A stretch of DNA of 64,000 nt from Paludicola sp. MB14-C6 (lineage in GTDB: Bacteria > Bacillota > Clostridia > Oscillospirales > Ruminococcaceae). How positions within the stretch are numbered: the first letter of the stretch is position 1; each line of letters opens with the position of its first letter. The stretch is taken from contig NZ_CP133133.1 in NCBI RefSeq assembly GCF_030908625.1, positions 2,046,001-2,110,000 of the forward strand, written 5' to 3'. Below, piece by piece: positions 11,770 to 64,000 of the stretch. Below the pieces are notes generated by a model. That model made no database searches. It was not told where the DNA came from and was given only the letters and a program-made list of their open reading frames with translations. A program made the position numbers and the translations under genes.

Positions 11770-12078
11770 AACAATTTAATCATTTAATGCGTTGATAGGG
11801 AGTAGTAGTTATAATTGCTTGATTCAGAGAGCCGTTGGTTGGTGTGAAACGGTGCAGGTGTTGTGATGAACTCGCCCTTGAGCAGTCACTTGAAATCGGA
11901 TAACCGAAATTAGAGTTGAACGGCATTCCACCGATAACAGGAATAGCATTTGATAGATGCGAAAAAAGTGGGTAACAGTACTACTTTGTAGAACTGTACC
12001 AATTGGAGTGGTACCGCGGAAGATTATACAGCTTTCGTCTCCTTGACTAATTGTCAAGAAGACGAGAGCTTTTTTATT
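11770..12078 (+). promoter_or_regulatory. T-box leader, probable leucine (CUC) specifier
   Basis: This is a tRNA-sensing leader that controls the downstream acyl-CoA synthetase gene by transcription antitermination. It shows the AGAGAG motif of stem I (about 11826), the distal GGTTGGTG element, a specifier region where GAA is followed by CTC (11871-11873) and GCCCTTGAGC, the universal T-box TGGTACCGCGG (12009-12019), and a competing terminator. The T-box base after TGG is T, which pairs with discriminator A73 and agrees with tRNA-Leu. Family knowledge says uncharged tRNA stabilises the antiterminator. The codon call comes from alignment by eye to the usual spacing and is less certain than the T-box itself. 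Confidence 0.9.
12030..12078 (+). terminator. T-box regulated terminator
   Basis: An 11-bp outer stem AGCTTTCGTCT / AGACGAGAGCT (one mismatch) carries an inner CTTGAC / GTCAAG stem and ends in TTTTTT. Its 5' side overlaps the end of the antiterminator region. Confidence 0.88.
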
Positions 12079-49712: not shown

Positions 49713-49743
49713 GAATATAAAGTTACATTGAAGGAGTATGTAT

Positions 49744-52700
49744 ATGAGATTGCGAAAACTTGTTGCATGTGTTTTATCTGTGTTAATGTTGTTATCAAAT
49801 GGTATTAACATGGTTTATGCTGAACCTTTATCTAAATCCCAAGACACCACAGGAACAAGTATGTCTAAAAATACTAACTATAACTTAGTATGGGATAAGC
49901 CAAGTGATACTAACCCATTTGGCGGTGCATCTAATTTTAATGCTACCGTTTTGGGGAATATTACAAAATTATCCGACAGTGAAGGCCCGGTTGCTTCCAA
50001 TGGAAGTATTTTTCCATATAATGTTTCACCCAATGGAATAAAAAGTGAATCTTCAATAGCTTGTGTCCCAATTGGAACACGTTTTGGTTCTCATACAGTT
50101 CCTTGGATTGAGCCAGATGCTATTGATAATGGCATTGCGCCTCAATTTAAACTTGGGTTACTATTAGCAGGTTTTGGTACCGCATCTTGCCCTGTAAAAT
50201 TCGGGGATGTAGTAGTTGGTATGCATGCTCAATATACTTCTAGTTGGAAACCATTTATTCGAACAGAAAAGGCGGATGCATATTTAAAAGCTGCACAAGC
50301 TGATTTAATCGAAATGAATCGCTATATTTCTTCGTTATCTGCAAACGGTACCATAGAAAACAAGTCTGATAAAATTACATTTATCGGTACAAAAGAGATA
50401 AATATATTCAATGTTGATTATTCTGTATTGGATTTTGCAAGAAAATCAGTAGAGTTTAAAATACCTAAAGATTCTACTGTTATATTGAATGTACAAGGCA
50501 ATGGAACAGTTACCTTGTGCACAGGTGAAAACAATGGTAGTACCCCTCTTGTTAATAGGAAAAAAGCAACTGCTGAATTTGCCGGCAGAGTGCTTTACAA
50601 TGTGAATAGCAATATTACAAAAGTAGTTTCAAGAGCAGGCACAAACTATTTATTTGGATCTGTTTTAGCGCCGCATTCTGATTTGAAAGCTACTGATGGT
50701 GGTAGTTCTATTAACGGTACTTTAGTATGCAAAAATGTAGAAGGTGTAGAAGGATTTGAATTTCATCATTTTCCTTTCCGTGGAAAAGTTCCTCCAAAGG
50801 ATGAACCTGCATTAACAAACTTTAAATTTACAAAAAAAGCGAATCCTACAAAAGTCGTTTCCTGTCCCGAGCTTTTTCATTCTTTTACAACAGAATGTCC
50901 GGGTTTAAATGGAGCCACTTTTGAGTTAACTAATAATGAAACAAAGAAAAAGTTTACTGCAACGTCGTTTGGTACTGAACAAAGAAGTCATGATTATTTT
51001 TGGGATATTTTGGGACTTTTTCAGGAATGCACCTCAACCACAGTAGAATTAGGAGAAGTTGCATTTTCAAACATTCCGATAGGTGAATATACCTTAACCG
51101 AGAAATCAGCTCCAAGCGGATATATAAAATCAAATGCAAAAATTACTGTTCGTGTTTTAAAATCAGCAGATGGTATAGTGCTTGTTAAGTTCTTTAATGC
51201 TAATGGTGTAGAAATAAGTAATGCTGATGTGGAAGAGTATTTTACCAATTCCAAGTACTCCGCAGAAATTGTAATGCACAAGCTAGGCTATAATGGAACT
51301 AAAAAGCAATTTGAACAAAGCGAATTAAAAGATGATAAAAAAGATAAAAAGGTAGTTTGGCTAAATGGCGCAACCTATCAATTAAAGGATAAAGATTTAG
51401 GTATTATTTATACTGCAACGACCAAGACTCAAGAATGGGATGAAAATGGACCTGACCAAGGTACTGCAATTTTTAAAAACATTCCTCTTGGAAACTATGA
51501 ATTAACTGAGATCACAGCACCTAATGGTTACATGAAATCCAATGTTGTTATTGATGTAACTGTATCTGAACATAGTGGAAGAGCTGAGGTCACTTACGAA
51601 TATAATAATAAGTCATTGTCTAATATTCATAACGTTCAATATAATGAGGTTGAGAAATTACTTGTAAACTTGGAAACTGCAGTTGCAAAATTCCACTTTT
51701 TTAAAGTAGGAAATGTCGATAATAACGGTAATCACGATCTTAAGTTAGTTAACGCAAGGTTCCAAGTAGTAGAGCGTGGAACCGATAGAGTAGTAGCAGA
51801 GGCTCTTTCTGATCACCAGGGTAAGGTTGATTTTGAAAATATTCCGTATGGCCTTTATACTTTAGTTGAAGCTGAAGCACCTACTGGCTATTTAAAAGGT
51901 AATCCGATTGATTTTGAAATTGTAAATAAGAATACAATCAATTTTGAAAATTGGAAGGGAATCGAGTATTATAATTATTTTAAAGAAGATGTATTTGGTA
52001 GTTTTAATTTTAATAAAAAAGACGACAAAGGCGCTTTCGTAAACGGCGCAGAATTTGGATTATTTGCAAAACTAAGCGATACCACACCAATTAACGGAGC
52101 ATGGGCAAAAGCAACATCTGCGAATGGCATAGTATCATTTGCTAACATTCCGGAAGGAACATATTTCTTAAAAGAAATTGCAGCACCAAACTCTCATATT
52201 ACATCAAGCAATTATGCAACCATTCAAGTGCAACGCGATGGTAACACCAATCGTGCTAAAGTTACGACTACACCTGATTCAAGATCTCTAGAACAAACAT
52301 TTGTCAATATGGTAAAAAAAGAGGTCTATGGTAGCTTAGAATTCACCAAGACGGACAACACAGGTGCGAATGTAAAAGATGCAATTTTTCATTTGGTAAA
52401 TAACAAAACCAATGCAACATTGAGTGCAACGTCAAACAATCTAGGTGAGGTAATATTCTCTAATATTCCGGAGGGAACATATACTTTATCTGAATTCCAA
52501 GTACCTTCAACTCATTTAAAAACTTCTGCAACAGCTACGATAAAGGTTGAAAGAATTGTAAATACCAATACGGCTCAAACAATTATTATCTCAGAAGGAA
52601 ATAAATCTTTACAAGAGCTTTTTAAAAATGAGAAGAAAGTAAATGTTTTTGGTAAAGTAGAATTCAATAAAAAAGACAATACCGGAGCGTATGTATCAGG

Positions 52701-55700
52701 CGCTGTTTTCCATTTAACAAATCAACAAACGCATGTTAAAGTTGCTGAGGCAAATTCAGGTGCAGATGGTAAAGTTACTTTTGATGCAATACCGGAAGGC
52801 ACTTATGAGATAGCTGAGTTTGTAGCACCAAATACACACTTTATCAGTACGGAAACGGCAACTGTAAAAGTAGAGCGTGACGGTAATACCAATAATGCAA
52901 AAGTTACGATTACAACAAATGGTAATCAATCATTGGATGATACATTTGTTAACGTTAAAAAAGTTGGATTTAGCTTTACTAAGAAAGGCAATGATAACAG
53001 CAAGCTAGAGAATGCAGTATTCCGCTTGATAGGTAATAACTATAATCAAACTGCAGCATCTAATAGTGAAGGAGTAGTAAGCTTTGATGGTTTACGTCCA
53101 GGAGTAACTTACTCATTAACTGAAGAGTCAGCACCTGCAAATTATTTCAAAGTTGATGGCAGCGTAAGTGTGGTTGTTGCAAATGATGGTTCAATCAGAT
53201 ATTCAAATGACTTGGAAACTTATTTCGTTAACACAAAACAAGTTTCTGTATTCGGGTCTGTTAGCTTTAATAAGGTAGATAATAGTGTCAACCCGGTCCC
53301 AGTTAGCGGTGCAACGTTTGGTTTATATAAACTTGATAACGGATCTAATGAATTGCTGAAAACTACAACAACACAAGCGGATGGAAAAGTATCTTTTGAT
53401 AATATCCCAGAAGGAAGATATACTTTAAATGAAATATCAGCACCATCCACTCATTTTAAAACAAGAGCATCAGCAACAGTACTTGTTACAAGAGATGGAA
53501 TGACCAATCAGTCACTTGTAAAGATTATAACATCAGATGACAACTCACCTGTTGAAACTTTTAAAAACCTTAAAAAATTAGATGTAACAGGAAAGCTAAG
53601 TTTTGTAAAACAAGAAACAGGTACAAATAAGCCATTAAAAGGTGCTGTATTTGAGCTCAAACAAGGCAATAACATTTTTAACGCAACTTCAAACAATAGT
53701 GGAGTCGTTTCTTTCAGCAATATTCCTGAAGGTGTATATACACTATCAGAAAAAACTCCACCGCAAAATGTAAATGGTGATGATACCCACTTTAAATCAG
53801 AAGCAACAGTAAATGTAAAAGTAGAACGAATTCCTGAAAGTAACAATAGTAAAGTACTAATAAATGATGTAGAGGTAAATCAAGAAGAACCAGTTGCAAC
53901 AGTTGCAACAGTTACAACAACATTTGTGAATACATTGATTACAAAGGTTACAGGTGAATTTAACTTTACTAAGATAGACGATAACAATCAAGCTGTAAAT
54001 GGTGCAGTATTCCAATTAAAACAAAATGGAAAAGTAATCATGACAGCATTATCTGAAAATGGAACAGTATCTTTTGCAAGTATTCCAGAAGGCACTTATG
54101 AGTTAACAGAGCAATCAGCACCAGAAACACACTTTGCATCACAAAACAAAGCTATAGTAGTGGTGAAACGTGTATCAGGTAAAAATGAAGCAACAACGAC
54201 CATATCTGTAGACAGAAAGAACTATTTAGCAGCTGATGCAAATAATGCATTAAAAGCAAACTTTGTTAACACACAAGTGAAAGATGTATTTGGAGCATTC
54301 CAATTTAGTAAAAAAGATAACGATAGAAATTATGTTAAAGGTGCAACATTCCAACTAACAGCAGATGGAAAAACTCCAATTGAAGTTATAACTGGAGAAA
54401 ACGGTTTAGTATCATTTACAAATATCCCTGTAGGAACATATACTTTATCTGAAAAAGCAGCACCAGATACCCACTTTAAAACAAATAAAACAGCAACAGT
54501 AGTTGTAGAGAGAGTAGCAGGTAAAAATGAAGTTACAACAACAATTACAGTTGAAAATCAAAACTATAACCCAACTACAGCACTTACCCCGTTAGAAAAT
54601 CTATTCAATAATACGAAGATAGTTCCTGTATTTGGAAAATTCAATTTTGATAAGAATGATAACACAGGGGATAAAGTAGCTAAAGCGGAATTTGGATTAT
54701 TCAAAAAAGCTGAAGAAACCACACCAATTAACGGAGCATGGGCAAAAGCTATTTCTAGTGCTGGATTTTTAGGAATAGAAAAGGGAAAAGTATCCTTTGA
54801 AAATGTTCCGGAAGGCACGTACTTCTTAAAAGAAATTGCAGCACCGGATTCTCACTTTCCTACAAAAGTGATGGCTGTTGTAAGAGTGGAACGTGATGGT
54901 CAGACGAATGATTCAAAAGTAGTTGTAGACAATGTTATAGTAAATCAAACGAGTGAAGTTAAAGCGTTGACAAGTAAATTTGTGAATGAAAAGAAAGTAG
55001 ATGTATTTGGCAAATTCAACTTCAATAAAAAAGATGATAAAGGAAACTTAGTAAATGGAGCAGTATTCGGATTATATGCAAATGAAAGTGAAACCACGCC
55101 AATTAATGAAACATGGGCAAAAGCTATTTCAACTAATGGTATAGTGTCCTTTGCAAGCATTCCGGAAGGAACGTATACACTAAAAGAAGTATCTGCACCG
55201 AATACCCACTTTAAATCAGAAGCAACAGTAAATGTAAAAGTAGAACGTGATGGTGATACGAATCTAGCAAAAGTAATAGTAGAAAATGTTGCAGTAAATC
55301 AAACGAGTGAAGTTGAAGCATTAACAAGCAGGTTTGTGAATGAAAAGAAAGTAGATGTCTTTGGCAGCTTTAGTTTCAATAAAAAAGATAATAAAGATGA
55401 TATTGTAAACGGCGCAGTATTCGGATTATATGCAAATGAAAGTGAAACTAATCCAATTAATGAAACATGGGCAAAAGCTATTTCAACCAATGGTATAGTA
55501 TCCTTTGCAAGCATTCCAGAAGGAACGTATACTTTAAAAGAAGTATCTGCACCGAATACCCACTTTAAATCAGAAGCAACAGTAAATGTAAAAGTAGAGC
55601 GCAACGGTAATAGCAATAATGCAAAAGTAACGACTACAACCAACAATATATCATTAAATGACACTTTTGTTAATCTAAAAAAAGTTGAATTTAGCTTTAC

Positions 55701-56766
55701 TAAGAAGAGTAATGATGATAGCAAGCTAGAGAATGCAGTATTCCGCTTGATAGGTAATAACTATAATCAAACTACCATATCTAATAGTGAAGGAATAGTA
55801 AGCTTTTCTGGTTTACGTCCAGGAGCAACTTACTCATTAACTGAAGAGTCTCCACCTGCAGGATATATTAAATCAGAAATCTCAGTTGGAATTCAAGTAG
55901 ATTCAGATGGAATAGTATCATGGACGAATTCAGATAAAACATTAGAAGAACAATTTGTTAATAAAGAGATTGTCGGAAATATTACTTTTACAAAGTATAT
56001 AAATGATAAGAAATATACTTTGGCTGGTGCGGAATTTGAATTATTGAAAGATAATAAGAGTTATGGTACCACAGTATTTTCTGATGCAAATGGTGTTGTT
56101 ACTTTTGTAAAAGTAAAACCAGGTAGTTATCAAATTAAGGAAGTTAGCTCGCATAATGAGTATTTTAAAAAGTCAGAAGAAGTAGTAAATGTGGTAGTTG
56201 ATGAAAATGGTTTAAGCTCATTATTAGGTGAAAATAGAGTGACAGCAGAAACCAAGTTTATTAACACATCTTTAAGCTTCATTCAATTTACAAAATACAC
56301 TTCAAATAATACTCGTATAGCAGGGGCAGTATTCGAATTGCTTCGTGGAACAGAAGTTGTAATGACAGATACTTCTGATCAAAACGGTATTGTTCGGTTT
56401 GAGAATATAGCCCCAGGTGAGTATACGATTCGTGAACAATCTGCACCAAGCGGTTATATTAGATCAAATGCAATTATGAAAGTTACCATTTATCCAGATG
56501 GAAAAACTTCAGCATCAGAGGATACAATTGCTGAGTGGGAAAAGGCTTTCATTAACAAACTTTACATTCCACCAGTACAGCCACCAGTAAATCCATCTAT
56601 ACCGCCTGAAGAAATTTTGGATGAGGAAACACCACTTTCAGGATTAGACGTTAAGCCGACAGAACAACCTCAAACTTCAGACAATACGAATATTTTGTGG
56701 CCAATATTAGTAGCTGTTGGAAGCTTGCTAGTTCTTTTCCGAAAGAAAAAATTGAATAACAAATAG
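49744..56766 (+). CDS. Giant cell-wall adhesin with 17 SpaA/Cna-B-like repeats
   Basis: This surface protein has 2340 aa. Signal peptide: about 1-27, ending VYA. Head: about 30-350 resembling the choice-of-anchor A/collagen-binding-type domain, with SVLAPHSDL and later SINGTLVCKNVEG. Stalk: 17 prealbumin-like repeats of about 100-118 residues, each with a strand Lys (such as FNFNKKD), a Glu in the TLKE/TLSE position and a terminal FVN Asn, the set that forms internal isopeptide bonds in such domains. The tail is a Pro-rich linker, then QPQTSDNT, a hydrophobic helix and FRKKKLNNK, a sortase-type anchor with an atypical motif. ATG 49744 has GAAGGAG at 8 nt; ATG 49738 is too close to it. Confidence 0.93.
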   Translation: MRLRKLVACVLSVLMLLSNGINMVYAEPLSKSQDTTGTSMSKNTNYNLVWDKPSDTNPFGGASNFNATVLGNITKLSDSEGPVASNGSIFPYNVSPNGIKSESSIACVPIGTRFGSHTVPWIEPDAIDNGIAPQFKLGLLLAGFGTASCPVKFGDVVVGMHAQYTSSWKPFIRTEKADAYLKAAQADLIEMNRYISSLSANGTIENKSDKITFIGTKEINIFNVDYSVLDFARKSVEFKIPKDSTVILNVQGNGTVTLCTGENNGSTPLVNRKKATAEFAGRVLYNVNSNITKVVSRAGTNYLFGSVLAPHSDLKATDGGSSINGTLVCKNVEGVEGFEFHHFPFRGKVPPKDEPALTNFKFTKKANPTKVVSCPELFHSFTTECPGLNGATFELTNNETKKKFTATSFGTEQRSHDYFWDILGLFQECTSTTVELGEVAFSNIPIGEYTLTEKSAPSGYIKSNAKITVRVLKSADGIVLVKFFNANGVEISNADVEEYFTNSKYSAEIVMHKLGYNGTKKQFEQSELKDDKKDKKVVWLNGATYQLKDKDLGIIYTATTKTQEWDENGPDQGTAIFKNIPLGNYELTEITAPNGYMKSNVVIDVTVSEHSGRAEVTYEYNNKSLSNIHNVQYNEVEKLLVNLETAVAKFHFFKVGNVDNNGNHDLKLVNARFQVVERGTDRVVAEALSDHQGKVDFENIPYGLYTLVEAEAPTGYLKGNPIDFEIVNKNTINFENWKGIEYYNYFKEDVFGSFNFNKKDDKGAFVNGAEFGLFAKLSDTTPINGAWAKATSANGIVSFANIPEGTYFLKEIAAPNSHITSSNYATIQVQRDGNTNRAKVTTTPDSRSLEQTFVNMVKKEVYGSLEFTKTDNTGANVKDAIFHLVNNKTNATLSATSNNLGEVIFSNIPEGTYTLSEFQVPSTHLKTSATATIKVERIVNTNTAQTIIISEGNKSLQELFKNEKKVNVFGKVEFNKKDNTGAYVSGAVFHLTNQQTHVKVAEANSGADGKVTFDAIPEGTYEIAEFVAPNTHFISTETATVKVERDGNTNNAKVTITTNGNQSLDDTFVNVKKVGFSFTKKGNDNSKLENAVFRLIGNNYNQTAASNSEGVVSFDGLRPGVTYSLTEESAPANYFKVDGSVSVVVANDGSIRYSNDLETYFVNTKQVSVFGSVSFNKVDNSVNPVPVSGATFGLYKLDNGSNELLKTTTTQADGKVSFDNIPEGRYTLNEISAPSTHFKTRASATVLVTRDGMTNQSLVKIITSDDNSPVETFKNLKKLDVTGKLSFVKQETGTNKPLKGAVFELKQGNNIFNATSNNSGVVSFSNIPEGVYTLSEKTPPQNVNGDDTHFKSEATVNVKVERIPESNNSKVLINDVEVNQEEPVATVATVTTTFVNTLITKVTGEFNFTKIDDNNQAVNGAVFQLKQNGKVIMTALSENGTVSFASIPEGTYELTEQSAPETHFASQNKAIVVVKRVSGKNEATTTISVDRKNYLAADANNALKANFVNTQVKDVFGAFQFSKKDNDRNYVKGATFQLTADGKTPIEVITGENGLVSFTNIPVGTYTLSEKAAPDTHFKTNKTATVVVERVAGKNEVTTTITVENQNYNPTTALTPLENLFNNTKIVPVFGKFNFDKNDNTGDKVAKAEFGLFKKAEETTPINGAWAKAISSAGFLGIEKGKVSFENVPEGTYFLKEIAAPDSHFPTKVMAVVRVERDGQTNDSKVVVDNVIVNQTSEVKALTSKFVNEKKVDVFGKFNFNKKDDKGNLVNGAVFGLYANESETTPINETWAKAISTNGIVSFASIPEGTYTLKEVSAPNTHFKSEATVNVKVERDGDTNLAKVIVENVAVNQTSEVEALTSRFVNEKKVDVFGSFSFNKKDNKDDIVNGAVFGLYANESETNPINETWAKAISTNGIVSFASIPEGTYTLKEVSAPNTHFKSEATVNVKVERNGNSNNAKVTTTTNNISLNDTFVNLKKVEFSFTKKSNDDSKLENAVFRLIGNNYNQTTISNSEGIVSFSGLRPGATYSLTEESPPAGYIKSEISVGIQVDSDGIVSWTNSDKTLEEQFVNKEIVGNITFTKYINDKKYTLAGAEFELLKDNKSYGTTVFSDANGVVTFVKVKPGSYQIKEVSSHNEYFKKSEEVVNVVVDENGLSSLLGENRVTAETKFINTSLSFIQFTKYTSNNTRIAGAVFELLRGTEVVMTDTSDQNGIVRFENIAPGEYTIREQSAPSGYIRSNAIMKVTIYPDGKTSASEDTIAEWEKAFINKLYIPPVQPPVNPSIPPEEILDEETPLSGLDVKPTEQPQTSDNTNILWPILVAVGSLLVLFRKKKLNNK
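52969..53140 (+). repeat. Adhesin repeat block shared with 55683-55860, copy 1
   Basis: This region encodes the shorter repeat type beginning FSFTKK and containing NAVFRLIGNNYNQT. The DNA is nearly identical to the block at 55683-55860, far closer than between average repeats. Confidence 0.8.
54979..55332 (+). repeat. 354-bp tandem adhesin repeat, copy 1
   Basis: This unit starts at TTTGTGAATGAAAAGAAAG and encodes repeat 13 of the stalk. The next unit begins exactly 354 bp (118 codons) later with nearly the same DNA, including silent positions, pointing to recent duplication. Confidence 0.82.
55333..55610 (+). repeat. Tandem adhesin repeat, copy 2
   Basis: This unit encodes repeat 14. It stays almost identical to copy 1 through a long stretch that ends with VNVKVER, then diverges. 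The same stretch from THFKSEATVNVKVER also occurs in repeat 9 (about 53790-53826). Confidence 0.8.
55683..55860 (+). repeat. Adhesin repeat block shared with 52969-53140, copy 2
   Basis: This block encodes repeat 15, the second FSFTKK-type domain, nearly identical in DNA to repeat 7. Confidence 0.8.
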
Positions 56767-59219: not shown

Positions 59220-60446
59220 TCATCCAGCGATTCTGTCCGAAAACATGATGTTTAATTGGTTTAAAACAACGTCCCAATTTCGACAACGTTGTGTCCATCG
59301 TTCGACAATTTTCTTTGAAGCTAAATACAGTATCCTTTTTAAACTATCATCATTTTGAAATGATGGTTTGTTCTTGGTTATTTGTCTGAACTGCCTGTTT
59401 AATCCCTCAATAATATTAGTTGTGTATATTATTTTCCTTACATCAGTTGGATATGCAAAAAAGGTTGATAGTATATCCCAGTTATCCTCCCAACTCTTTA
59501 TGCAAGAAGGATAACTTTTACCCCATTTTTCTTTGAATGATATTAGATTATTCAATGCTTCTTCCTCTGTAACAGCTTGATATACTAGTTTTAGATCTGC
59601 CATTAACTTCTTGATATCTTTGTATCCTACATATCGTGTTGAATATCGAATTTGATGTATAATACAACGTTGAATGTGCGCTTTGGGATATGCTGCATTG
59701 ATTGCTTCTTTAAAACCTTTTAAACCGTCAACACAAAATAGGTATACATCTTGCAAACCCCTTGATTTCAAGTCATTCATAACGCTCAACCAGAATTTTG
59801 AGCTCTCGTTTTCTCCAATCCAAATGCCCAATATATCTTTATTTCCTTCAAGTGTAATTCCTAAAACCACATATGCTGCTTTCGTTACAAACTGATTGTT
59901 TTCTTTTACTTTGTAGTGTATTGCATCCATGAACACAAATGGGTATACACTATCTAGTGGACGGTTTTGCCATGCTGTTACTTCCGGCATTATTTTTTCT
60001 GTTATCTTGCTTACTAGTCCATCTGAAATTTCTACATCATAAAGATTTTTTACTTGTTCAGCAATATCTCGTTGAGACATGCCACAAGAGTAAAGTGCAA
60101 TAATTTTTTCTTCCATCCCGTCAGCATTACGATTATATTTACCAATAATTTGTGGTTCAAATTCACCGTTTCTATCACGAGGAACATTAATATCCACTTC
60201 GCCAAGTTGTGTTTTAACTGTTTTCTTTGAATATCCATTTCGATAATTTTTCGACATGCTTTTTCCGTCATCGTTCGCTATTCTTTGACTTTTTTGGTAA
60301 CCCAATTCTTCGTCTAATTCACTATCCATAACTTGCTGAAGAACATCTTTGAACATCTCTTTCATTGCCTGCATAACCTCTGTTGTGCTTGTGAAGTTTT
60401 GGCTGTTCACATACTCTTTTAATAACTCTTTCGGTTGCTTTTCCAT
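59220..60446 (-). CDS. IS256-family (Mutator-type) transposase
   Basis: This 408-aa transposase matches the IS256 group throughout. MKEMFKDVLQQVMDSELDEELGY is near the N-terminus, followed by the GEVDINVPRDRNGEFEP segment. The catalytic triad sits in VFMDAIHYKVKE (Asp), FCVDGLKGFKEAI (Asp) and IIYTTNIIEGLNRQFR (Glu). RCIIHQIRYSTRYV lies in the usual place. The frame is complete with a normal start context (AAGGAAGT upstream). The length is typical of the family, so the element may be functional. Confidence 0.95.
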   Translation of the reverse strand: MEKQPKELLKEYVNSQNFTSTTEVMQAMKEMFKDVLQQVMDSELDEELGYQKSQRIANDDGKSMSKNYRNGYSKKTVKTQLGEVDINVPRDRNGEFEPQIIGKYNRNADGMEEKIIALYSCGMSQRDIAEQVKNLYDVEISDGLVSKITEKIMPEVTAWQNRPLDSVYPFVFMDAIHYKVKENNQFVTKAAYVVLGITLEGNKDILGIWIGENESSKFWLSVMNDLKSRGLQDVYLFCVDGLKGFKEAINAAYPKAHIQRCIIHQIRYSTRYVGYKDIKKLMADLKLVYQAVTEEEALNNLISFKEKWGKSYPSCIKSWEDNWDILSTFFAYPTDVRKIIYTTNIIEGLNRQFRQITKNKPSFQNDDSLKRILYLASKKIVERWTQRCRNWDVVLNQLNIMFSDRIAG

Positions 60447-60551: not shown

Positions 60552-62750
60552 CTAATCTAATCTAGCAATCATTTCGTCTTGCAGTTCCTTAGGTAAATCT
60601 ACAAAGTGAGCAGAGACACCCCAGAGTCTTACAATCAAATCTTTATACTTTTCGGGATTAAGTTGAGCATTCTTTAAATCGTCAAGATCCATTACATTTG
60701 GTTGATGTTGCAAACCACCAATTGAAAAATAAGATTTAATAAGGTTTTCTAAAATCTCACTACCATTATTGCCTTTAAAAGTTGAAGCAAAATATGAAAT
60801 CATAACACAATAATTCCATTGAATACATTGATAATCAATTTTTGCAGCAGATTTTAATGTTGCAGTTGGTCCATTTTTCATTGTTCCACTTTCTGGGGTT
60901 AAAGTTACTGCAACAGGAGTTCCTTGTTTTCTGCCTTCTGGAGTAGCCATTAAAGCTTGCCCAGTTATAACTGGATGCGGTTGATGAATTCCAGCGAGAT
61001 GCACTCCACCAGATACAGTTTTGTATTGAGATATTTCTTTACAACAATACTCAAGGATATCTTTTGCTATTAAATCAATATAATCGTCATCGTTACCCCA
61101 TTTTGGTGCATTCCATAGTTCATTTCGCATGATTTCACCATCAAGACCTTCAAAGTTATTCTCACAAGCATTATAAACCTCAGATAATTTATACTTCTTT
61201 AAATCATATACATACTTTTTAATTGCCGCAAGTGAGTTAATTCCTTCTGTCGGGCAGCCAATAAATACGCCCTTGTGCTTAACCGGATAACTTTCAAGTG
61301 TCATGTCTGTTGCTGAATCTATACTACCATGGAATAATGGAGATAGAATTGGAAGTGGGCACATGAGAGAACGCCATTCTAGATTTGAAGAAATTTTATT
61401 GTTTTTTAGTTCGTTAAAATAATATTGCTTATTGCCATTTTTATATTCTAGAAAAGCTTTATGTGTACGGTTAAAATGTTCAATTTTTACTTTTATTACA
61501 TTACCTAATTTTTCTTTAAATTGTGTAATAAACTCATCAAAAGTCAAATTATCTTTTGCAGTAGATAAGAAATCCATCAATGTATTAACTAAAGAAATCT
61601 GTCCTGAACAGTAAAAATCACCTTTTCCGGCAATTGTAATATCTTGACATAAATCAAAGCTGTAATCTCGAGCATATTTCACCTCTACTCCGGCTTTTAT
61701 CATACTTTCAATAAATAAATCATCATTATAATATGATATAAAATTTAGTCCTCTTACCGAAAGTTGGGTTGCCTTTTTAAGAAATTCAGGAGGGTTTTTA
61801 CTGTTGATTCTAATACTAATTTCTGGCTCAGGAAGGGCAGTCTTTTCAACTCCATTTAGTATCATAAAAGAAACTGCATTAACTGCGTTATCCCCATTTT
61901 CTAATATGCCTCCAATTGTGATATTTAGTTGAGCTGCATACTTATTCAAATAACTTTGATTTAAATCTACTTGATCATACATCTTTAAAAGTAAGCATTC
62001 AATTAACTGCTGTGCATCTTCGTATTTTGTATTTGCAAGGTATTTATTAAAAATCACATCTAATCTACCATAGTTTATAAATTCAAAACTTTCAATTAAA
62101 GTTGCTAAATGTGCAAACCACATAAGCTGAATTGCTTCATAAAAATTAGATGCTGGTTTATGTGAGATACATTTACATACACGACTAATTTCTAAAAGCT
62201 CTAATTTTCTTTTATTGTTTCTTTCTTGTTGTGATAATTTGAAAGCATATTCACTATATCTGTTAATTAAACATGATAGCCCATTATATGCAATTATTAC
62301 GCTATTAAGAAAATCAATATTATCTTGAGAAAGATTATTTTCATTTAATTTCGTCTTACAATTAGCAATAATCCCATCTATTCCTTGTTCAAGTATTATT
62401 GAATAATCGGGAGTGTAGTGAGTTTTATTATAAAACTGTTCGTTAAAACCAAAATAATCAATATCAGTTTGATTTACATAACTCGGATATGCTTGCAAGC
62501 AATAATCGCTAATATCATGATTATCCTCATTTCCTTTGTTTGCACATAGCATAGTACGTGTTCCGACAATTAGCTCTTGCTCACCAATATATAGTGGCAT
62601 ATTCTCAAATATCATTTTTGCACCCATTGCTTTTCGCTCGCACAAACTGGCATTTTCAGTGGCAGTTGTCCAATCTGATGGCATTGAAACTCTAGCAACT
62701 TTATTTTTGCTTGTTATAGTCTGTTCTCGAAGGTATTGCGTCCTTGTCAT
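60552..62750 (-). CDS. Glycyl-radical enzyme, unassigned class (PFL-like)
   Basis: This 732-aa glycyl-radical enzyme is related to pyruvate formate-lyase and dehydratase-type members but is not clearly any named class. The C-terminal barrel segment reads MATPEGRKQGTPVAVTL then KNGPTATLKSAAK, which is general to the family. The radical Gly is G711 in RLWGVSAHF, where most members have RVxGYS. The thiyl Cys is probably C368 in DLCQDI, giving CxD in place of the usual CxE of dehydratases and decarboxylases. GGAGGG precedes the ATG. The gene is third after an alcohol dehydrogenase and its activase, hinting at an aldehyde product (inference). Confidence 0.88.
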   Translation of the reverse strand: MTRTQYLREQTITSKNKVARVSMPSDWTTATENASLCERKAMGAKMIFENMPLYIGEQELIVGTRTMLCANKGNEDNHDISDYCLQAYPSYVNQTDIDYFGFNEQFYNKTHYTPDYSIILEQGIDGIIANCKTKLNENNLSQDNIDFLNSVIIAYNGLSCLINRYSEYAFKLSQQERNNKRKLELLEISRVCKCISHKPASNFYEAIQLMWFAHLATLIESFEFINYGRLDVIFNKYLANTKYEDAQQLIECLLLKMYDQVDLNQSYLNKYAAQLNITIGGILENGDNAVNAVSFMILNGVEKTALPEPEISIRINSKNPPEFLKKATQLSVRGLNFISYYNDDLFIESMIKAGVEVKYARDYSFDLCQDITIAGKGDFYCSGQISLVNTLMDFLSTAKDNLTFDEFITQFKEKLGNVIKVKIEHFNRTHKAFLEYKNGNKQYYFNELKNNKISSNLEWRSLMCPLPILSPLFHGSIDSATDMTLESYPVKHKGVFIGCPTEGINSLAAIKKYVYDLKKYKLSEVYNACENNFEGLDGEIMRNELWNAPKWGNDDDYIDLIAKDILEYCCKEISQYKTVSGGVHLAGIHQPHPVITGQALMATPEGRKQGTPVAVTLTPESGTMKNGPTATLKSAAKIDYQCIQWNYCVMISYFASTFKGNNGSEILENLIKSYFSIGGLQHQPNVMDLDDLKNAQLNPEKYKDLIVRLWGVSAHFVDLPKELQDEMIARLD

Positions 62751-62762
62751 ATTAACCCTCCA

Positions 62763-63698
62763 CTAATCAATATTGATTCCATTATTAATAAAAATCTGTT
62801 TATATTTAGATAACGTATGATTTTCTATTAACTTCGTAGTGTTATAGCAATAATCGAATCCTAATGTTTTATATTTGCTCTTTCCTAAAGTGTGATATGG
62901 CATTAGAGTTACTTTTTTTATATTTTGCAGTGGCTTAATAAAATTTGCTATATATTCCATTTCTTTTTGGGTAGAATTCACTCCATCTATAACAGGAATT
63001 CTAATCCAAATTGGTTTGTTATGTTTATCTAAGTTTATCAAATTCTCCAAAATAAGCTTGTTAGAAACTCCTGTTGCATTTCTATGAATCCCTTCATCAA
63101 ATGCTTTTATATCATATAAGTACAAATCGCAATATGGTAAGGTTTTCTCAAAAAGCTCCCAACTTGCATATCCACAGGTATCAATTGTAGTGTTAATGCC
63201 TACCACTTTGCATAGCTTCATGCATTCAACTACAAATTCAGCCTGCAGCATTGCTTCACCACCTGAAAATGTCACTCCACCATCAACACCATAGAAATCT
63301 TTATCTTTTAAGACAAGTTTTAAAACTTCATCAGGTGTTAATTCAAAACCACAAATTGTTAGTGCTTGTGTTGGACAGTTATTGATACATTTTTGACACA
63401 GCTTACAATTATTGTGGTTTATAATATGCTCTCCATGTATAAATGCATGACAGCTACATATTTCTTGGCATTTTCTACATTCGATGCATTTTTCACTGAA
63501 ATATTGCATCTGTTTATTTTTATACAGTCCCTCTGGATTGTGACACCATTTGCATCTTAATGGACAACCTTTCATAAAAATGGTAGTCCTAATACCATTA
63601 CCATCATGCACTGAAAAACGTTGTACATCAAAAACTATTCCTTTTAAAATAATATATTCCCCCTTATAAAGAAAGCAAATATATTTGTTTGATGTCAT
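62763..63698 (-). CDS. Glycyl-radical enzyme activating protein (radical SAM)
   Basis: This protein uses SAM and a 4Fe-4S cluster to place the radical on the enzyme encoded 12 bp downstream. The frame is 311 aa. The radical-SAM motif is CPLRCKWC (C45, C49, C52), then a ferredoxin-like insert with two clusters' worth of Cys (71, 74, 77, 81 and 98, 101, 104, 108), then GGVTFSGGEAMLQ. The insert is characteristic of activases for dehydratase/lyase-type enzymes, not of PflA. The ATG at 63698 lies inside the upstream gene with a poor site. An AAGGGGG overlaps the upstream stop codon and points to an ATT start at 63653 or 63650, which would trim 15 or 16 residues and fit homologues better. Confidence 0.92.
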   Translation of the reverse strand: MTSNKYICFLYKGEYIILKGIVFDVQRFSVHDGNGIRTTIFMKGCPLRCKWCHNPEGLYKNKQMQYFSEKCIECRKCQEICSCHAFIHGEHIINHNNCKLCQKCINNCPTQALTICGFELTPDEVLKLVLKDKDFYGVDGGVTFSGGEAMLQAEFVVECMKLCKVVGINTTIDTCGYASWELFEKTLPYCDLYLYDIKAFDEGIHRNATGVSNKLILENLINLDKHNKPIWIRIPVIDGVNSTQKEMEYIANFIKPLQNIKKVTLMPYHTLGKSKYKTLGFDYCYNTTKLIENHTLSKYKQIFINNGINID

Positions 63699-64000
63699 CT
63701 TTTCTTAAAGGAGGATTACTTCCTAAAACACCATTTTCATTAAAGCTTACTTCAACAACATCGGAAACTAGTTGCTCAATGTCTTCTTTGTTTACACCAA
63801 ATTCAGATATTCTCGTTTGAACGCCATATTTTTTTATGTAACTTTCAAAAGTTAATACGGCTTGCCTTAGATTTTGTGAAAAAATCATTTGAGCAAATTG
63901 TTCGTATCTATTATTATCTTCTCTATTTGCAAAAAACTTCATCCACGCAAGCATCATACAAGATAGTGTTGCTCCGTGCGTTGCGTGATAACGAGCGCTC
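63664..64000 (-). CDS. Iron-containing alcohol dehydrogenase, 3' part
   Basis: This is the C-terminal part of a group III (iron-dependent) alcohol dehydrogenase; the 5' part lies beyond the window. At the edge the frame reads RYHATHGATLS, the conserved His-containing metal-binding segment, followed by MMLAWMKFFANRED, close to the butanol-dehydrogenase BdhA/YugJ pattern. The remaining helices (FAQMIFSQNLRQAVLTFESYIKKYG and later LRKDDIKQIYLLSL) match the usual C-terminus. It likely reduces an aldehyde with NAD(P)H and is the first visible gene of the operon with the activase and glycyl-radical enzyme. Confidence 0.88.
   Translation of the reverse strand, partial: SARYHATHGATLSCMMLAWMKFFANREDNNRYEQFAQMIFSQNLRQAVLTFESYIKKYGVQTRISEFGVNKEDIEQLVSDVVEVSFNENGVLGSNPPLRKDDIKQIYLLSL

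What the first reader, a model, noticed from the sequence alone, without database searches (positions are those of the whole stretch)
60552..62750. Glycyl-radical enzyme with non-consensus radical loop and CxD site
The C-terminal loop reads RLWGVSAHF where characterised enzymes show R-[VI]-x-G-Y-S, so the Tyr after the radical Gly is Val and Trp precedes it. The apparent thiyl site is C368-Q-D370; dehydratases, decarboxylases and C-S lyases usually have C-x-E, and PFL has CC. Together with an activase bearing two extra clusters, this suggests a class with its own chemistry.
Basis: partly seen in the sequence, partly recalled or inferred. Interest (0 to 1): 0.75.

Follow-up and report, generated by a model that had tools for sequence, protein, structure and literature searches.

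The report
Uncharacterised radical enzyme in sugar-cleaving operon
A gut bacterium carries a member of an untested class of glycyl-radical enzymes with altered catalytic motifs, and its neighbouring genes suggest that it strips a hydroxyl group from a sugar alcohol so that a kinase and an aldolase can split the product for fermentation.

Summary
Window 60552-62750(-) encodes a 732-aa glycyl-radical enzyme (GRE) with C368-Q-D370 and R708-LWGVSAHF. Of 120 listed proteins of its family (itself included), 120 have R[LM]WG[VI] and 119 have CQD; of 77 other GREs aligned from the same order, none has CxD or Val after Gly. The family is one clade (support 100), at most 33% identical to six references, far below every NCBIfam class cut-off; closest solved folds are glycerol and 1,2-propanediol dehydratases. 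The activase's two extra clusters are ordinary.

New is the context. The operon runs on past the window as Fe-alcohol dehydrogenase, XylB-like kinase (frame-broken here), deoxyribose-phosphate aldolase and GntR. Kinase and aldolase subtypes occur in the same 13 of 39 GRE genomes; in an order sample the kinase occurs in 5 of 345 genomes, all GRE-positive. A candidate operator is shared with sister operons carrying a different GRE. I infer a dehydratase turning a pentitol-like polyol into a deoxy-sugar, cleaved to acetaldehyde plus triose phosphate. Against it: 18 of 26 cassette-free GRE genomes show no DeoC over cut-off. Substrate and activity are untested.

The parts
60552..62750 (-). Glycyl-radical enzyme, 732 aa
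   Evidence: AlphaFold2 mean pLDDT 90.6, pTM 0.92; closest fold 1r8w glycerol dehydratase
61641..61649 (-). Codons of C368-Q369-D370, thiyl site with Asp where GRE eliminases have Glu
   Evidence: CQD in 119 of 120 listed proteins; 0 of 77 other GREs have CxD
60603..60629 (-). Codons of R708-LWGVSAHF-716, radical loop; G711 is the predicted radical Gly
   Evidence: R[LM]WG[VI] in 120 of 120 listed proteins
62418..62420 (-). Codon of H111, aligned with H164 of glycerol dehydratase
   Evidence: invariant in 25 aligned members
62763..63698 (-). Radical-SAM GRE activase, 311 aa, CX3CX2C plus two ferredoxin-type CX2CX2CX3C motifs
   Evidence: TIGR02494 336 bits, cut-off 174
63664..63999 (-). C-terminal part of Fe-containing alcohol dehydrogenase (complete gene L006:9665-10858, runs past the window end)
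59220..60446 (-). Transposase, 408 aa (IS256-like by recall; the same ORF is listed again in L006 and L008), just downstream of the GRE; not part of the pathway

Best explanation
The protein is an eliminase-type glycyl-radical enzyme of an uncharacterised class. Its activase installs a radical on G711, which passes to C368; the thiyl radical takes an H from a carbon that bears OH, D370 deprotonates that OH, the neighbouring OH leaves as water, and an aldehyde (deoxy-sugar) results. In the window's operon type the deoxy-sugar, phosphorylated before or after this step by a dedicated XylB-like FGGY kinase, is split by a dedicated DeoC aldolase into acetaldehyde and a triose phosphate, and the Fe-ADH reduces acetaldehyde to ethanol. 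The most likely substrate is a pentitol or its phosphate (ribitol or D-arabitol would give 2-deoxy-D-ribose). Shown: motifs, predicted fold, operon, co-occurrence, shared candidate operator. Inferred: every reaction. My split: eliminase of a sugar or polyol 0.75; feeding this kinase and DeoC in window-type operons 0.55; pentitol to 2-deoxypentose 0.35. In the window's own genome the kinase gene is frame-broken (or misassembled), so the pathway may be off or incomplete there.
For: Fold: best matches are glycerol and 1,2-propanediol dehydratases. C368, D370, H111 and G711 align with Cys433, Glu435, His164 and Gly763 of glycerol dehydratase. Operon: GntR, DeoC, FGGY, Fe-ADH, activase, GRE in L006 and L012 (activase there in two tblastn pieces); all but GntR in L011; all but ADH in L021; DeoC and FGGY divergent from GntR-XylFGH-activase-GRE in the spirochaete locus L034, no ADH; remnants in L044. 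GRE, activase, XylB-like kinase and XylHGF-like importer in L070. DeoC is over its equivalog cut-off (197 vs 117 bits) and keeps both lysine motifs (roles recalled). Operon-type FGGY in 13 of 39 GRE genomes at E<=1e-120; operon-type DeoC in the same 13 at E<=1e-50, 12 at 1e-70. Order sample: FGGY in 5 of 345, all five among the 17 GRE-positive genomes; nominal Fisher p 1.6e-7 taking all 17 as in the sample. Sister operons with GntR, DeoC, FGGY and ADH carry other GRE types (L104, L105, L109), and two of these three share the candidate operator AAACATNATNATGTTT at up to 1 mismatch. A GRE-free version has a polyol dehydrogenase of the GolD/DthD family over cut-off (L082).
Against: 26 of 39 GRE genomes lack the operon-type kinase and DeoC at the thresholds used, and 18 of those 26 show no DeoC over cut-off at all (many are draft MAGs). 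L015 and L016 have the GRE and activase at the L011-type site without the DeoC-FGGY-ADH cassette, so the GRE can be kept without it. The operon DeoC has K[TS]GTGW in place of KTSTGF and may prefer another substrate. FGGY and ADH reach no equivalog cut-off. Two GRE-negative genomes of the order have a DeoC of 258-279 bits, about as strong as those of the GRE-positive G564 and G795 (256-262 bits). L082 and L107 pair the same kinase and aldolase types with SDR dehydrogenases and no GRE nearby, which does not by itself call for a deoxy-sugar. Several GRE-only loci lie beside GH78 or GH29 genes, which would suit rhamnose or fucose products. No activity data exist.
Confidence: 0.5

Rival explanations
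1. It is a 1,2-propanediol dehydratase: L-fucose or L-rhamnose gives lactaldehyde, the Fe-ADH makes 1,2-propanediol, and the GRE dehydrates it to propanal.
For: Second-best solved fold is 1,2-propanediol dehydratase. GH78-like genes near the GRE in L018, L025, L032, L038, L040 (L018 and L038 match rhamnosidase models at 209-297 bits, far below their cut-offs) and GH29-like genes in L006/L079, L020, L038 and, weakly, L022 and L044 (label recalled). FucI-like ORF in L029 (by its start; not scanned), FucA-type aldolase (260 bits, cut-off 264) and partial rhamnulokinase in L034.
Against: Does not explain DeoC, the XylB-like kinase or the XylFGH-like importer. E435 is Asp, and the H281, S282 and D447 positions of glycerol dehydratase are not kept. 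GH genes are common in rumen MAGs (recalled) and their enrichment was not tested.
Confidence: 0.17
2. It acts on an anhydro-alditol (phosphate) by ring-opening C-O cleavage, like the E. coli YbiW and PflD type, and DeoC or another aldolase takes the deoxy-ketose.
For: Same logic of GRE plus class I aldolase; fsaA lies next to ybiW/ybiY; PDB titles give 1,5-anhydro-hexitol-6-phosphates as YbiW and PflD ligands.
Against: Only 25-26% identical to YbiW and PflD and not grouped with them. DeoC over its equivalog cut-off points to a 2-deoxy-aldose phosphate rather than a 1-deoxy-ketose (inference). YbiW and PflD keep CxE.
Confidence: 0.13
3. The GRE works alone as an electron-sink dehydratase of some polyol whose aldehyde is simply reduced, and the kinase-aldolase cassette is a separate pathway that was captured by some loci.
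For: 26 of 39 GRE genomes lack the cassette, 18 of these 26 show no DeoC over cut-off; presence or absence at one site in L011 versus L015/L016.
Against: In the order sample no GRE-negative genome has the kinase subtype at E<=1e-120; for DeoC 4 of 6 hits at E<=1e-70 are in GRE-positive genomes and 2 in GRE-negative ones. Candidate operator and GntR shared across operons.
Confidence: 0.15
4. It is no longer a working GRE (drifted loop, unusual acid).
For: Departure from RVxG[FWY] and CxE; kinase of the same operon broken in this genome.
Against: Motifs almost invariant in the 120 listed proteins (53-87% identical to the window's, itself aside); an activase in 32 of 34 loci that hold sequence upstream of the GRE, missing in L023 and L044; confident fold.
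Confidence: 0.03

Closest known systems
B12-independent glycerol dehydratase (1r8w/1r9d) and GRE 1,2-propanediol dehydratase (5i2a, 9rco)
   Same: Fold (TM about 0.8); Cys and Gly loops, H at the H164 site of glycerol dehydratase
   Different: 33% identity to glycerol dehydratase; CQD for CVE; RLWGV for RVAGY; H281, S282, D447 not kept
YbiW and PflD, 1,5-anhydro-hexitol-6-phosphate enzymes of E. coli (function recalled; ligands named in PDB titles)
   Same: For ybiW, a class I aldolase gene next door (fsaA); radical C-O cleavage feeding an aldolase (recalled)
   Different: Other place in the tree, CxE and RVAGYS kept; Fsa rather than DeoC
trans-4-hydroxyproline dehydratase HypD and choline lyase CutC
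   Same: Eliminase fold and mechanism class
   Different: 318 of 1100 and 296 of 1050 bits of the NCBIfam cut-offs; CxE in both
SPU bacterial microcompartments (DeoC, RpiB, aldehyde dehydrogenase; PMC4207490, passages seen)
   Same: DeoC as source of acetaldehyde in a catabolic locus
   Different: Those passages name no GRE or FGGY kinase for them; no shell gene was recognised near our loci, which were not screened for one
Deoxyribose-phosphate aldolase DeoC (TIGR00126)
   Same: Operon DeoC over cut-off; both lysine motifs kept
   Different: Shared K[TS]GTGW...PTTV signature in six operon copies, unlike KTSTGF...GGAT of 6d33; a separate copy lies at G000:C1:930689

Membership tests
Glycyl-radical enzyme superfamily | PFL-like and Gly_radical domains | tested here: met
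   PF02901 359 bits, PF01228 72 bits, over cut-off
Glycyl-radical enzyme superfamily | Radical Gly and thiyl Cys in loops | tested here: met
   G711 and C368 align with Gly763 and Cys433 of 1r8w
Glycyl-radical enzyme superfamily | RVXG[FWY] fingerprint | tested here: not met
   RLWGV; family-wide; fingerprint from PMC11528403
Glycyl-radical enzyme superfamily | Neighbouring GRE activase | tested here: met
   TIGR02494 336 bits, cut-off 174
Glycyl-radical enzyme superfamily | Glycyl radical by EPR | not testable with these tools
   needs purified enzyme
GRE eliminases | CXE motif | tested here: not met
   CQD in 119 of 120; CXE from PMC8473560, PMC7077986
GRE eliminases | Predicted fold closest to eliminases | tested here: met
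   top Foldseek hits are dehydratases
GRE eliminases | Elimination activity | not testable with these tools
   needs assay
Glycerol/1,2-propanediol dehydratase class | H164, H281, S282, E435, D447 positions (roles recalled) | tested here: not met
   only H164 kept; E435 is Asp; others vary
HypD, CutC, HpsG, HpfG, IAD, HPAD, PFL (NCBIfam equivalogs); PFL2-3 subfamily TIGR01774 | Curated score cut-off | tested here: not met
   best equivalog 318 of 1100 bits; TIGR01774 350 of 678 bits
YbiW/PflD anhydrohexitol-phosphate lyases | Clustering in a GRE tree | tested here: not met
   own clade with support 100; YbiW and PflD elsewhere, deep nodes weak
Deoxyribose-phosphate aldolase (operon partner) | TIGR00126 cut-off 117 bits | tested here: met
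   197, 195, 188 bits in L006, L011, L034
Xylulokinase XylB (operon partner) | TIGR01312 cut-off 380 bits | tested here: not met
   325 and 336 bits in L011 and L034; GHSLG (GFSLG in L034) where L070 and E. coli xylulokinase have GQMH

The most novel reading that the evidence does not exclude
A radical deoxygenation route in gut anaerobes: a GRE with an Asp base makes 2-deoxypentose (or its 5-phosphate) from a pentitol without B12 and without ribonucleotide reductase, and a dedicated kinase, DeoC and ADH ferment it to ethanol plus glycolytic triose phosphate with balanced NADH. At least three distinct GRE subfamilies have been recruited to the same kind of GntR-controlled module, possibly for different polyol isomers.
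Probability: 0.3. Interest if true: 0.8.

Novelty: new variant of a known kind. Interest (0 to 1): 0.58.

Why it matters
GRE classes have repeatedly turned out to run unsuspected gut pathways, and a passage of PMC11574389 says that many abundant gut GREs have unknown functions. This one comes with a testable pathway guess, a regulator with a candidate operator, and a clean structural question: what a shorter acid (Asp for Glu) at the site of the catalytic base and a Val after the radical Gly do to substrate choice, activation and radical stability. If the pentitol reading is right, it would be a source of 2-deoxyribose units outside nucleotide reduction and a redox-balanced way to ferment sugar alcohols.

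Tried and rejected
Viral contigs gave no relative (67 stretches matched a pattern, 0 confirmed). First ORF calling picked long antisense ORFs and hid DeoC and GntR genes in some loci; replaced by tblastn. In one search one query, GRE_L070, was in a wrong frame (29 stops); its rows are not used, and the L070 GRE was re-read. Tandem repeats near the gene: none. Recoding: no in-frame stop in the GRE. The Trp before Gly as a class mark: rejected. The activase clusters as a sign of novelty: rejected (plus recall). A shell-protein organelle: no shell gene was recognised in the loci read, but they were not screened for one. Literature: searches listed, by title and start of abstract, no paper on a GRE with DeoC, a pentitol or a deoxy-sugar product; several lists were capped (25 of 1,459, 25 of 2,210, 30 of 35, 5 of 2,509) and the library lacks most subscription journals, so this is weak evidence of absence.

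Limits: Fisher p ignores shared ancestry (two of the five genomes share the window's genus, two more share another) and takes the number of GRE-positive genomes in the 345 as at most 17. The DeoC control (E<=1e-70) is stricter than the search of GRE genomes (1e-50). Many GRE genomes are draft MAGs. 3 of the 39 loci (L046-L048) were dropped because their record prefixes match those of L036, L026 and L037. In one search, 3 of the 7 hits score only 339-370 bits and are taken as other GREs. The tree uses 6 named references only, three of them partial chains, and leaves out the partial L045; deep branches have support 25-88.

Full report
WHAT IS THERE. The ORF at 60552-62750 on the minus strand encodes 732 aa with both GRE Pfam domains. 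In an alignment with glycerol dehydratase (1r8w), CutC, HypD, YbiW, PflD and PflB, C368, D370 and G711 fall on the thiyl Cys, the Glu of CxE (Ser in PflB) and the radical Gly. Published consensus: RVXG[FWY] (PMC11528403, passage) and CXE for eliminases (PMC8473560 and PMC7077986, passages). So both departures are real.

MORE THAN CHANCE. A search of the large protein set gave 347 proteins at E<=1e-30; only the best 120 are listed, the window's own among them; of these 120 have R[LM]WG[VI] and 119 have CQD. In 59 genomes of the same order there were 95 GRE hits. I read 81; 77 aligned at both loops: 0 had CxD, 0 had Val after Gly, and 75 had F, W or Y there. The 14 not read were 4 members of this family, 3 other GREs of the window genome, G069:C254, G049:C34, G043:C44 and 4 fragments. 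Trp before Gly occurs elsewhere (RVWGFS, RIWGWS), so it does not mark the class.

A CLASS OF ITS OWN. No NCBIfam equivalog comes near its cut-off (best 318 of 1100 bits). Identity to the six references is 23-33%. In a maximum-likelihood tree the 12 family members used (WIN, L011, L012, L021, L029, L030, L033, L034, L039, L040, L041, L070) form one clade with support 100 on a long branch; deep nodes are weak. The AlphaFold2 model (pLDDT 90.6, pTM 0.92) is closest to glycerol dehydratase and then 1,2-propanediol dehydratases. The activase is a normal one; an activase lies in 32 of 34 loci that hold sequence upstream of the GRE, missing in L023 and L044.

SPREAD. The GTDB scan found 39 loci from 36 record prefixes, titled mostly as gut Clostridia or Oscillospiraceae MAGs, with one Spirochaetia record. 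In whole-genome samples: 17 of 394 genomes of the order, 3 of 391 of the class sample (two of these are the window's genus), 2 of 18 of the family of G564. The contig length of L044 (Merdimmobilis hominis An559) equals that of G007's contig, and G007 is listed as the same genus as the window, so the window is probably from that genus.

THE OPERON. Past the window end the order on the minus strand is GntR, mobile elements, DeoC, FGGY kinase, Fe-ADH, activase, GRE (L006). The same genes recur: L012 (GntR, DeoC, FGGY, ADH, activase in two tblastn pieces, GRE), L021 (GntR, DeoC, FGGY, activase, GRE), L011 (DeoC, FGGY, ADH, activase, GRE, then adenine deaminase), L044 (GntR, DeoC remnant, FGGY, GRE remnant), L034 (DeoC-FGGY divergent from GntR-XylFGH-activase-GRE). 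In G835 the cassette runs into the start of an activase where my stretch ends (L106), and part of the GRE opens another contig (L035); in G821 the cassette lies about 11 kb from the GRE on what is by length the same contig (L103, L017). In L070 the order is XylF, G, H, XylB-like kinase, activase, GRE, and L080 has kinase, activase, GRE. In L036 and L045 a PfkB-type sugar kinase (KDG kinase-like, below cut-off) precedes the activase. The XylF and XylG of L034 score below their cut-offs. Kinase and importer types point to a sugar-like substrate.

CO-OCCURRENCE. Profile A3 (operon FGGY) hits 13 of 39 GRE genomes at E<=1e-120; profile A2 (operon DeoC) hits the same 13 at E<=1e-50 and 12 at 1e-70. 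In 345 genomes of the order, A3 hits 5, all among the 17 GRE-positive genomes; A2 at E<=1e-70 hits 6, of which G270 and G044 are not in the GRE-positive list and score 258-279 bits, as low as the GRE-positive G564 and G795 (256-262); G007 carries only a DeoC fragment that misses this threshold. The window genome has a second DeoC at C1:930689.

SISTER MODULES. GntR, DeoC, FGGY and ADH lie beside other GREs in L104 (DGCTELI, RVWGYS), L109 (DGCTEIM, RVWGFS; also a CMN, RIGGHS GRE) and L105 (MGCNEL, RVSGFS), 22-25% identical to the window's. DeoC and FGGY of these types lie beside two SDR dehydrogenases, with no GRE in the stretch read, in L082 (LacI-type regulator by recall) and L107 (GntR); one L082 SDR is over the GolD/DthD cut-off (343 vs 286 bits). 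So the kinase-aldolase pair is the constant part, and the entry enzyme varies.

OPERATOR. A palindrome AAACATNATNATGTTT with at most 1 mismatch occurs in 5 of 12 distinct module loci (L006 twice, L012, L044, L104 twice, L105), each time upstream of GntR or DeoC, in neither L070 nor L082, and in 0 of 27 GRE loci without the cassette beside the GRE. In L006, 2 sites at up to 2 mismatches were found against 0.68 expected (37 of 200 shuffles reach 2), so the count alone is weak; the placement is the point. In L006 and L104 two sites lie 63 and 65 bp apart upstream of DeoC, the inner one exactly between TTGACA and TACAAT or TATAAT with 17 bp spacing. L104 carries the other GRE type, so one regulator type seems to serve both. 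Seven module loci (L011, L021, L034, L103, L106, L107, L109) have no site at up to 1 mismatch.

MECHANISM. By analogy with GRE eliminases (passages): thiyl radical at C368, H abstraction at a carbinol carbon, D370 as base, loss of the neighbouring OH, aldehyde. For a pentitol this gives a 2-deoxypentose; DeoC would cleave its 5-phosphate to acetaldehyde and glyceraldehyde-3-phosphate, and NADH from the triose branch pays for ethanol. The logic resembles YbiW/PflD with Fsa and GldA (pathway recalled; fsaA beside ybiW; ligands in PDB titles). Whether the kinase acts before or after the GRE is open.

RESULTS AGAINST. 26 of 39 GRE genomes lack the cassette and 18 of those 26 show no DeoC over cut-off. 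L015 and L016 keep GlgB, activase, GRE and adenine deaminase without the cassette present in L011. The FGGY gene of the window genome is frame-broken near L006:11280, while DeoC, ADH, activase and GRE are open; an assembly error is not excluded. GH78 and GH29 genes near several GRE loci leave a rhamnose/fucose to 1,2-propanediol reading alive.

LITERATURE. Seen only as passages: PMC11528403, PMC11574389, PMC4207490, PMC8473560, PMC7077986. Searches listed no report of this class or pathway by title or abstract start; several lists were capped and most subscription papers are not held.

VERDICT. A real, recurrent, uncharacterised GRE class with a family-wide CxD site and RLWGV loop; most likely a polyol dehydratase that in the window's operon type feeds a kinase and DeoC. 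New variant of a known kind.

Noticed in passing
G000:C1:2569443-2570891 (L009:7123-9348): A fourth GRE of the window genome is split by an in-frame TGA (332 and 405 aa ORFs), downstream of an activase and an aldo-keto reductase by sequence type.
   Followed up: no
L006:10873-12374: FGGY kinase of the operon is frame-broken in the window's genome; mobile elements lie between GntR and DeoC and just downstream of the GRE.
   Followed up: partly
L208, L210, L212, L213, L215-L218 (C-x-W); L179, L185, L199, L206 (C-x-Q); L211, L214 (C-C-C); L177, L189 (C-x-G): The order holds GREs with other Cys-site motifs: C-x-W 8, C-x-Q 4, C-C-C 2, C-x-G 2 of 77 aligned.
   Followed up: no
L109:1159-3297: GRE with CMN at the thiyl site and RIGGHS radical loop (His after Gly), in a locus with an operon-type FGGY kinase.
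   Followed up: no
G564 (L082, L110): One single-contig genome carries 12 DeoC-type hits (11 over the cut-off), some in tandem; two of the places read have an FGGY kinase and sugar ABC genes nearby.
   Followed up: partly
L011, L106 versus L015, L016: DeoC-FGGY-ADH cassette present or absent at the same place between GlgB and the GRE activase.
   Followed up: partly
window 49738-56766: A 2342-aa repetitive surface protein of many similar domains, with a signal-like start and a C-terminal hydrophobic tail (Cna-B-like by recall).
   Followed up: no
window 11783-12045: T-box leader (Rfam RF00230, 122 bits).
   Followed up: no
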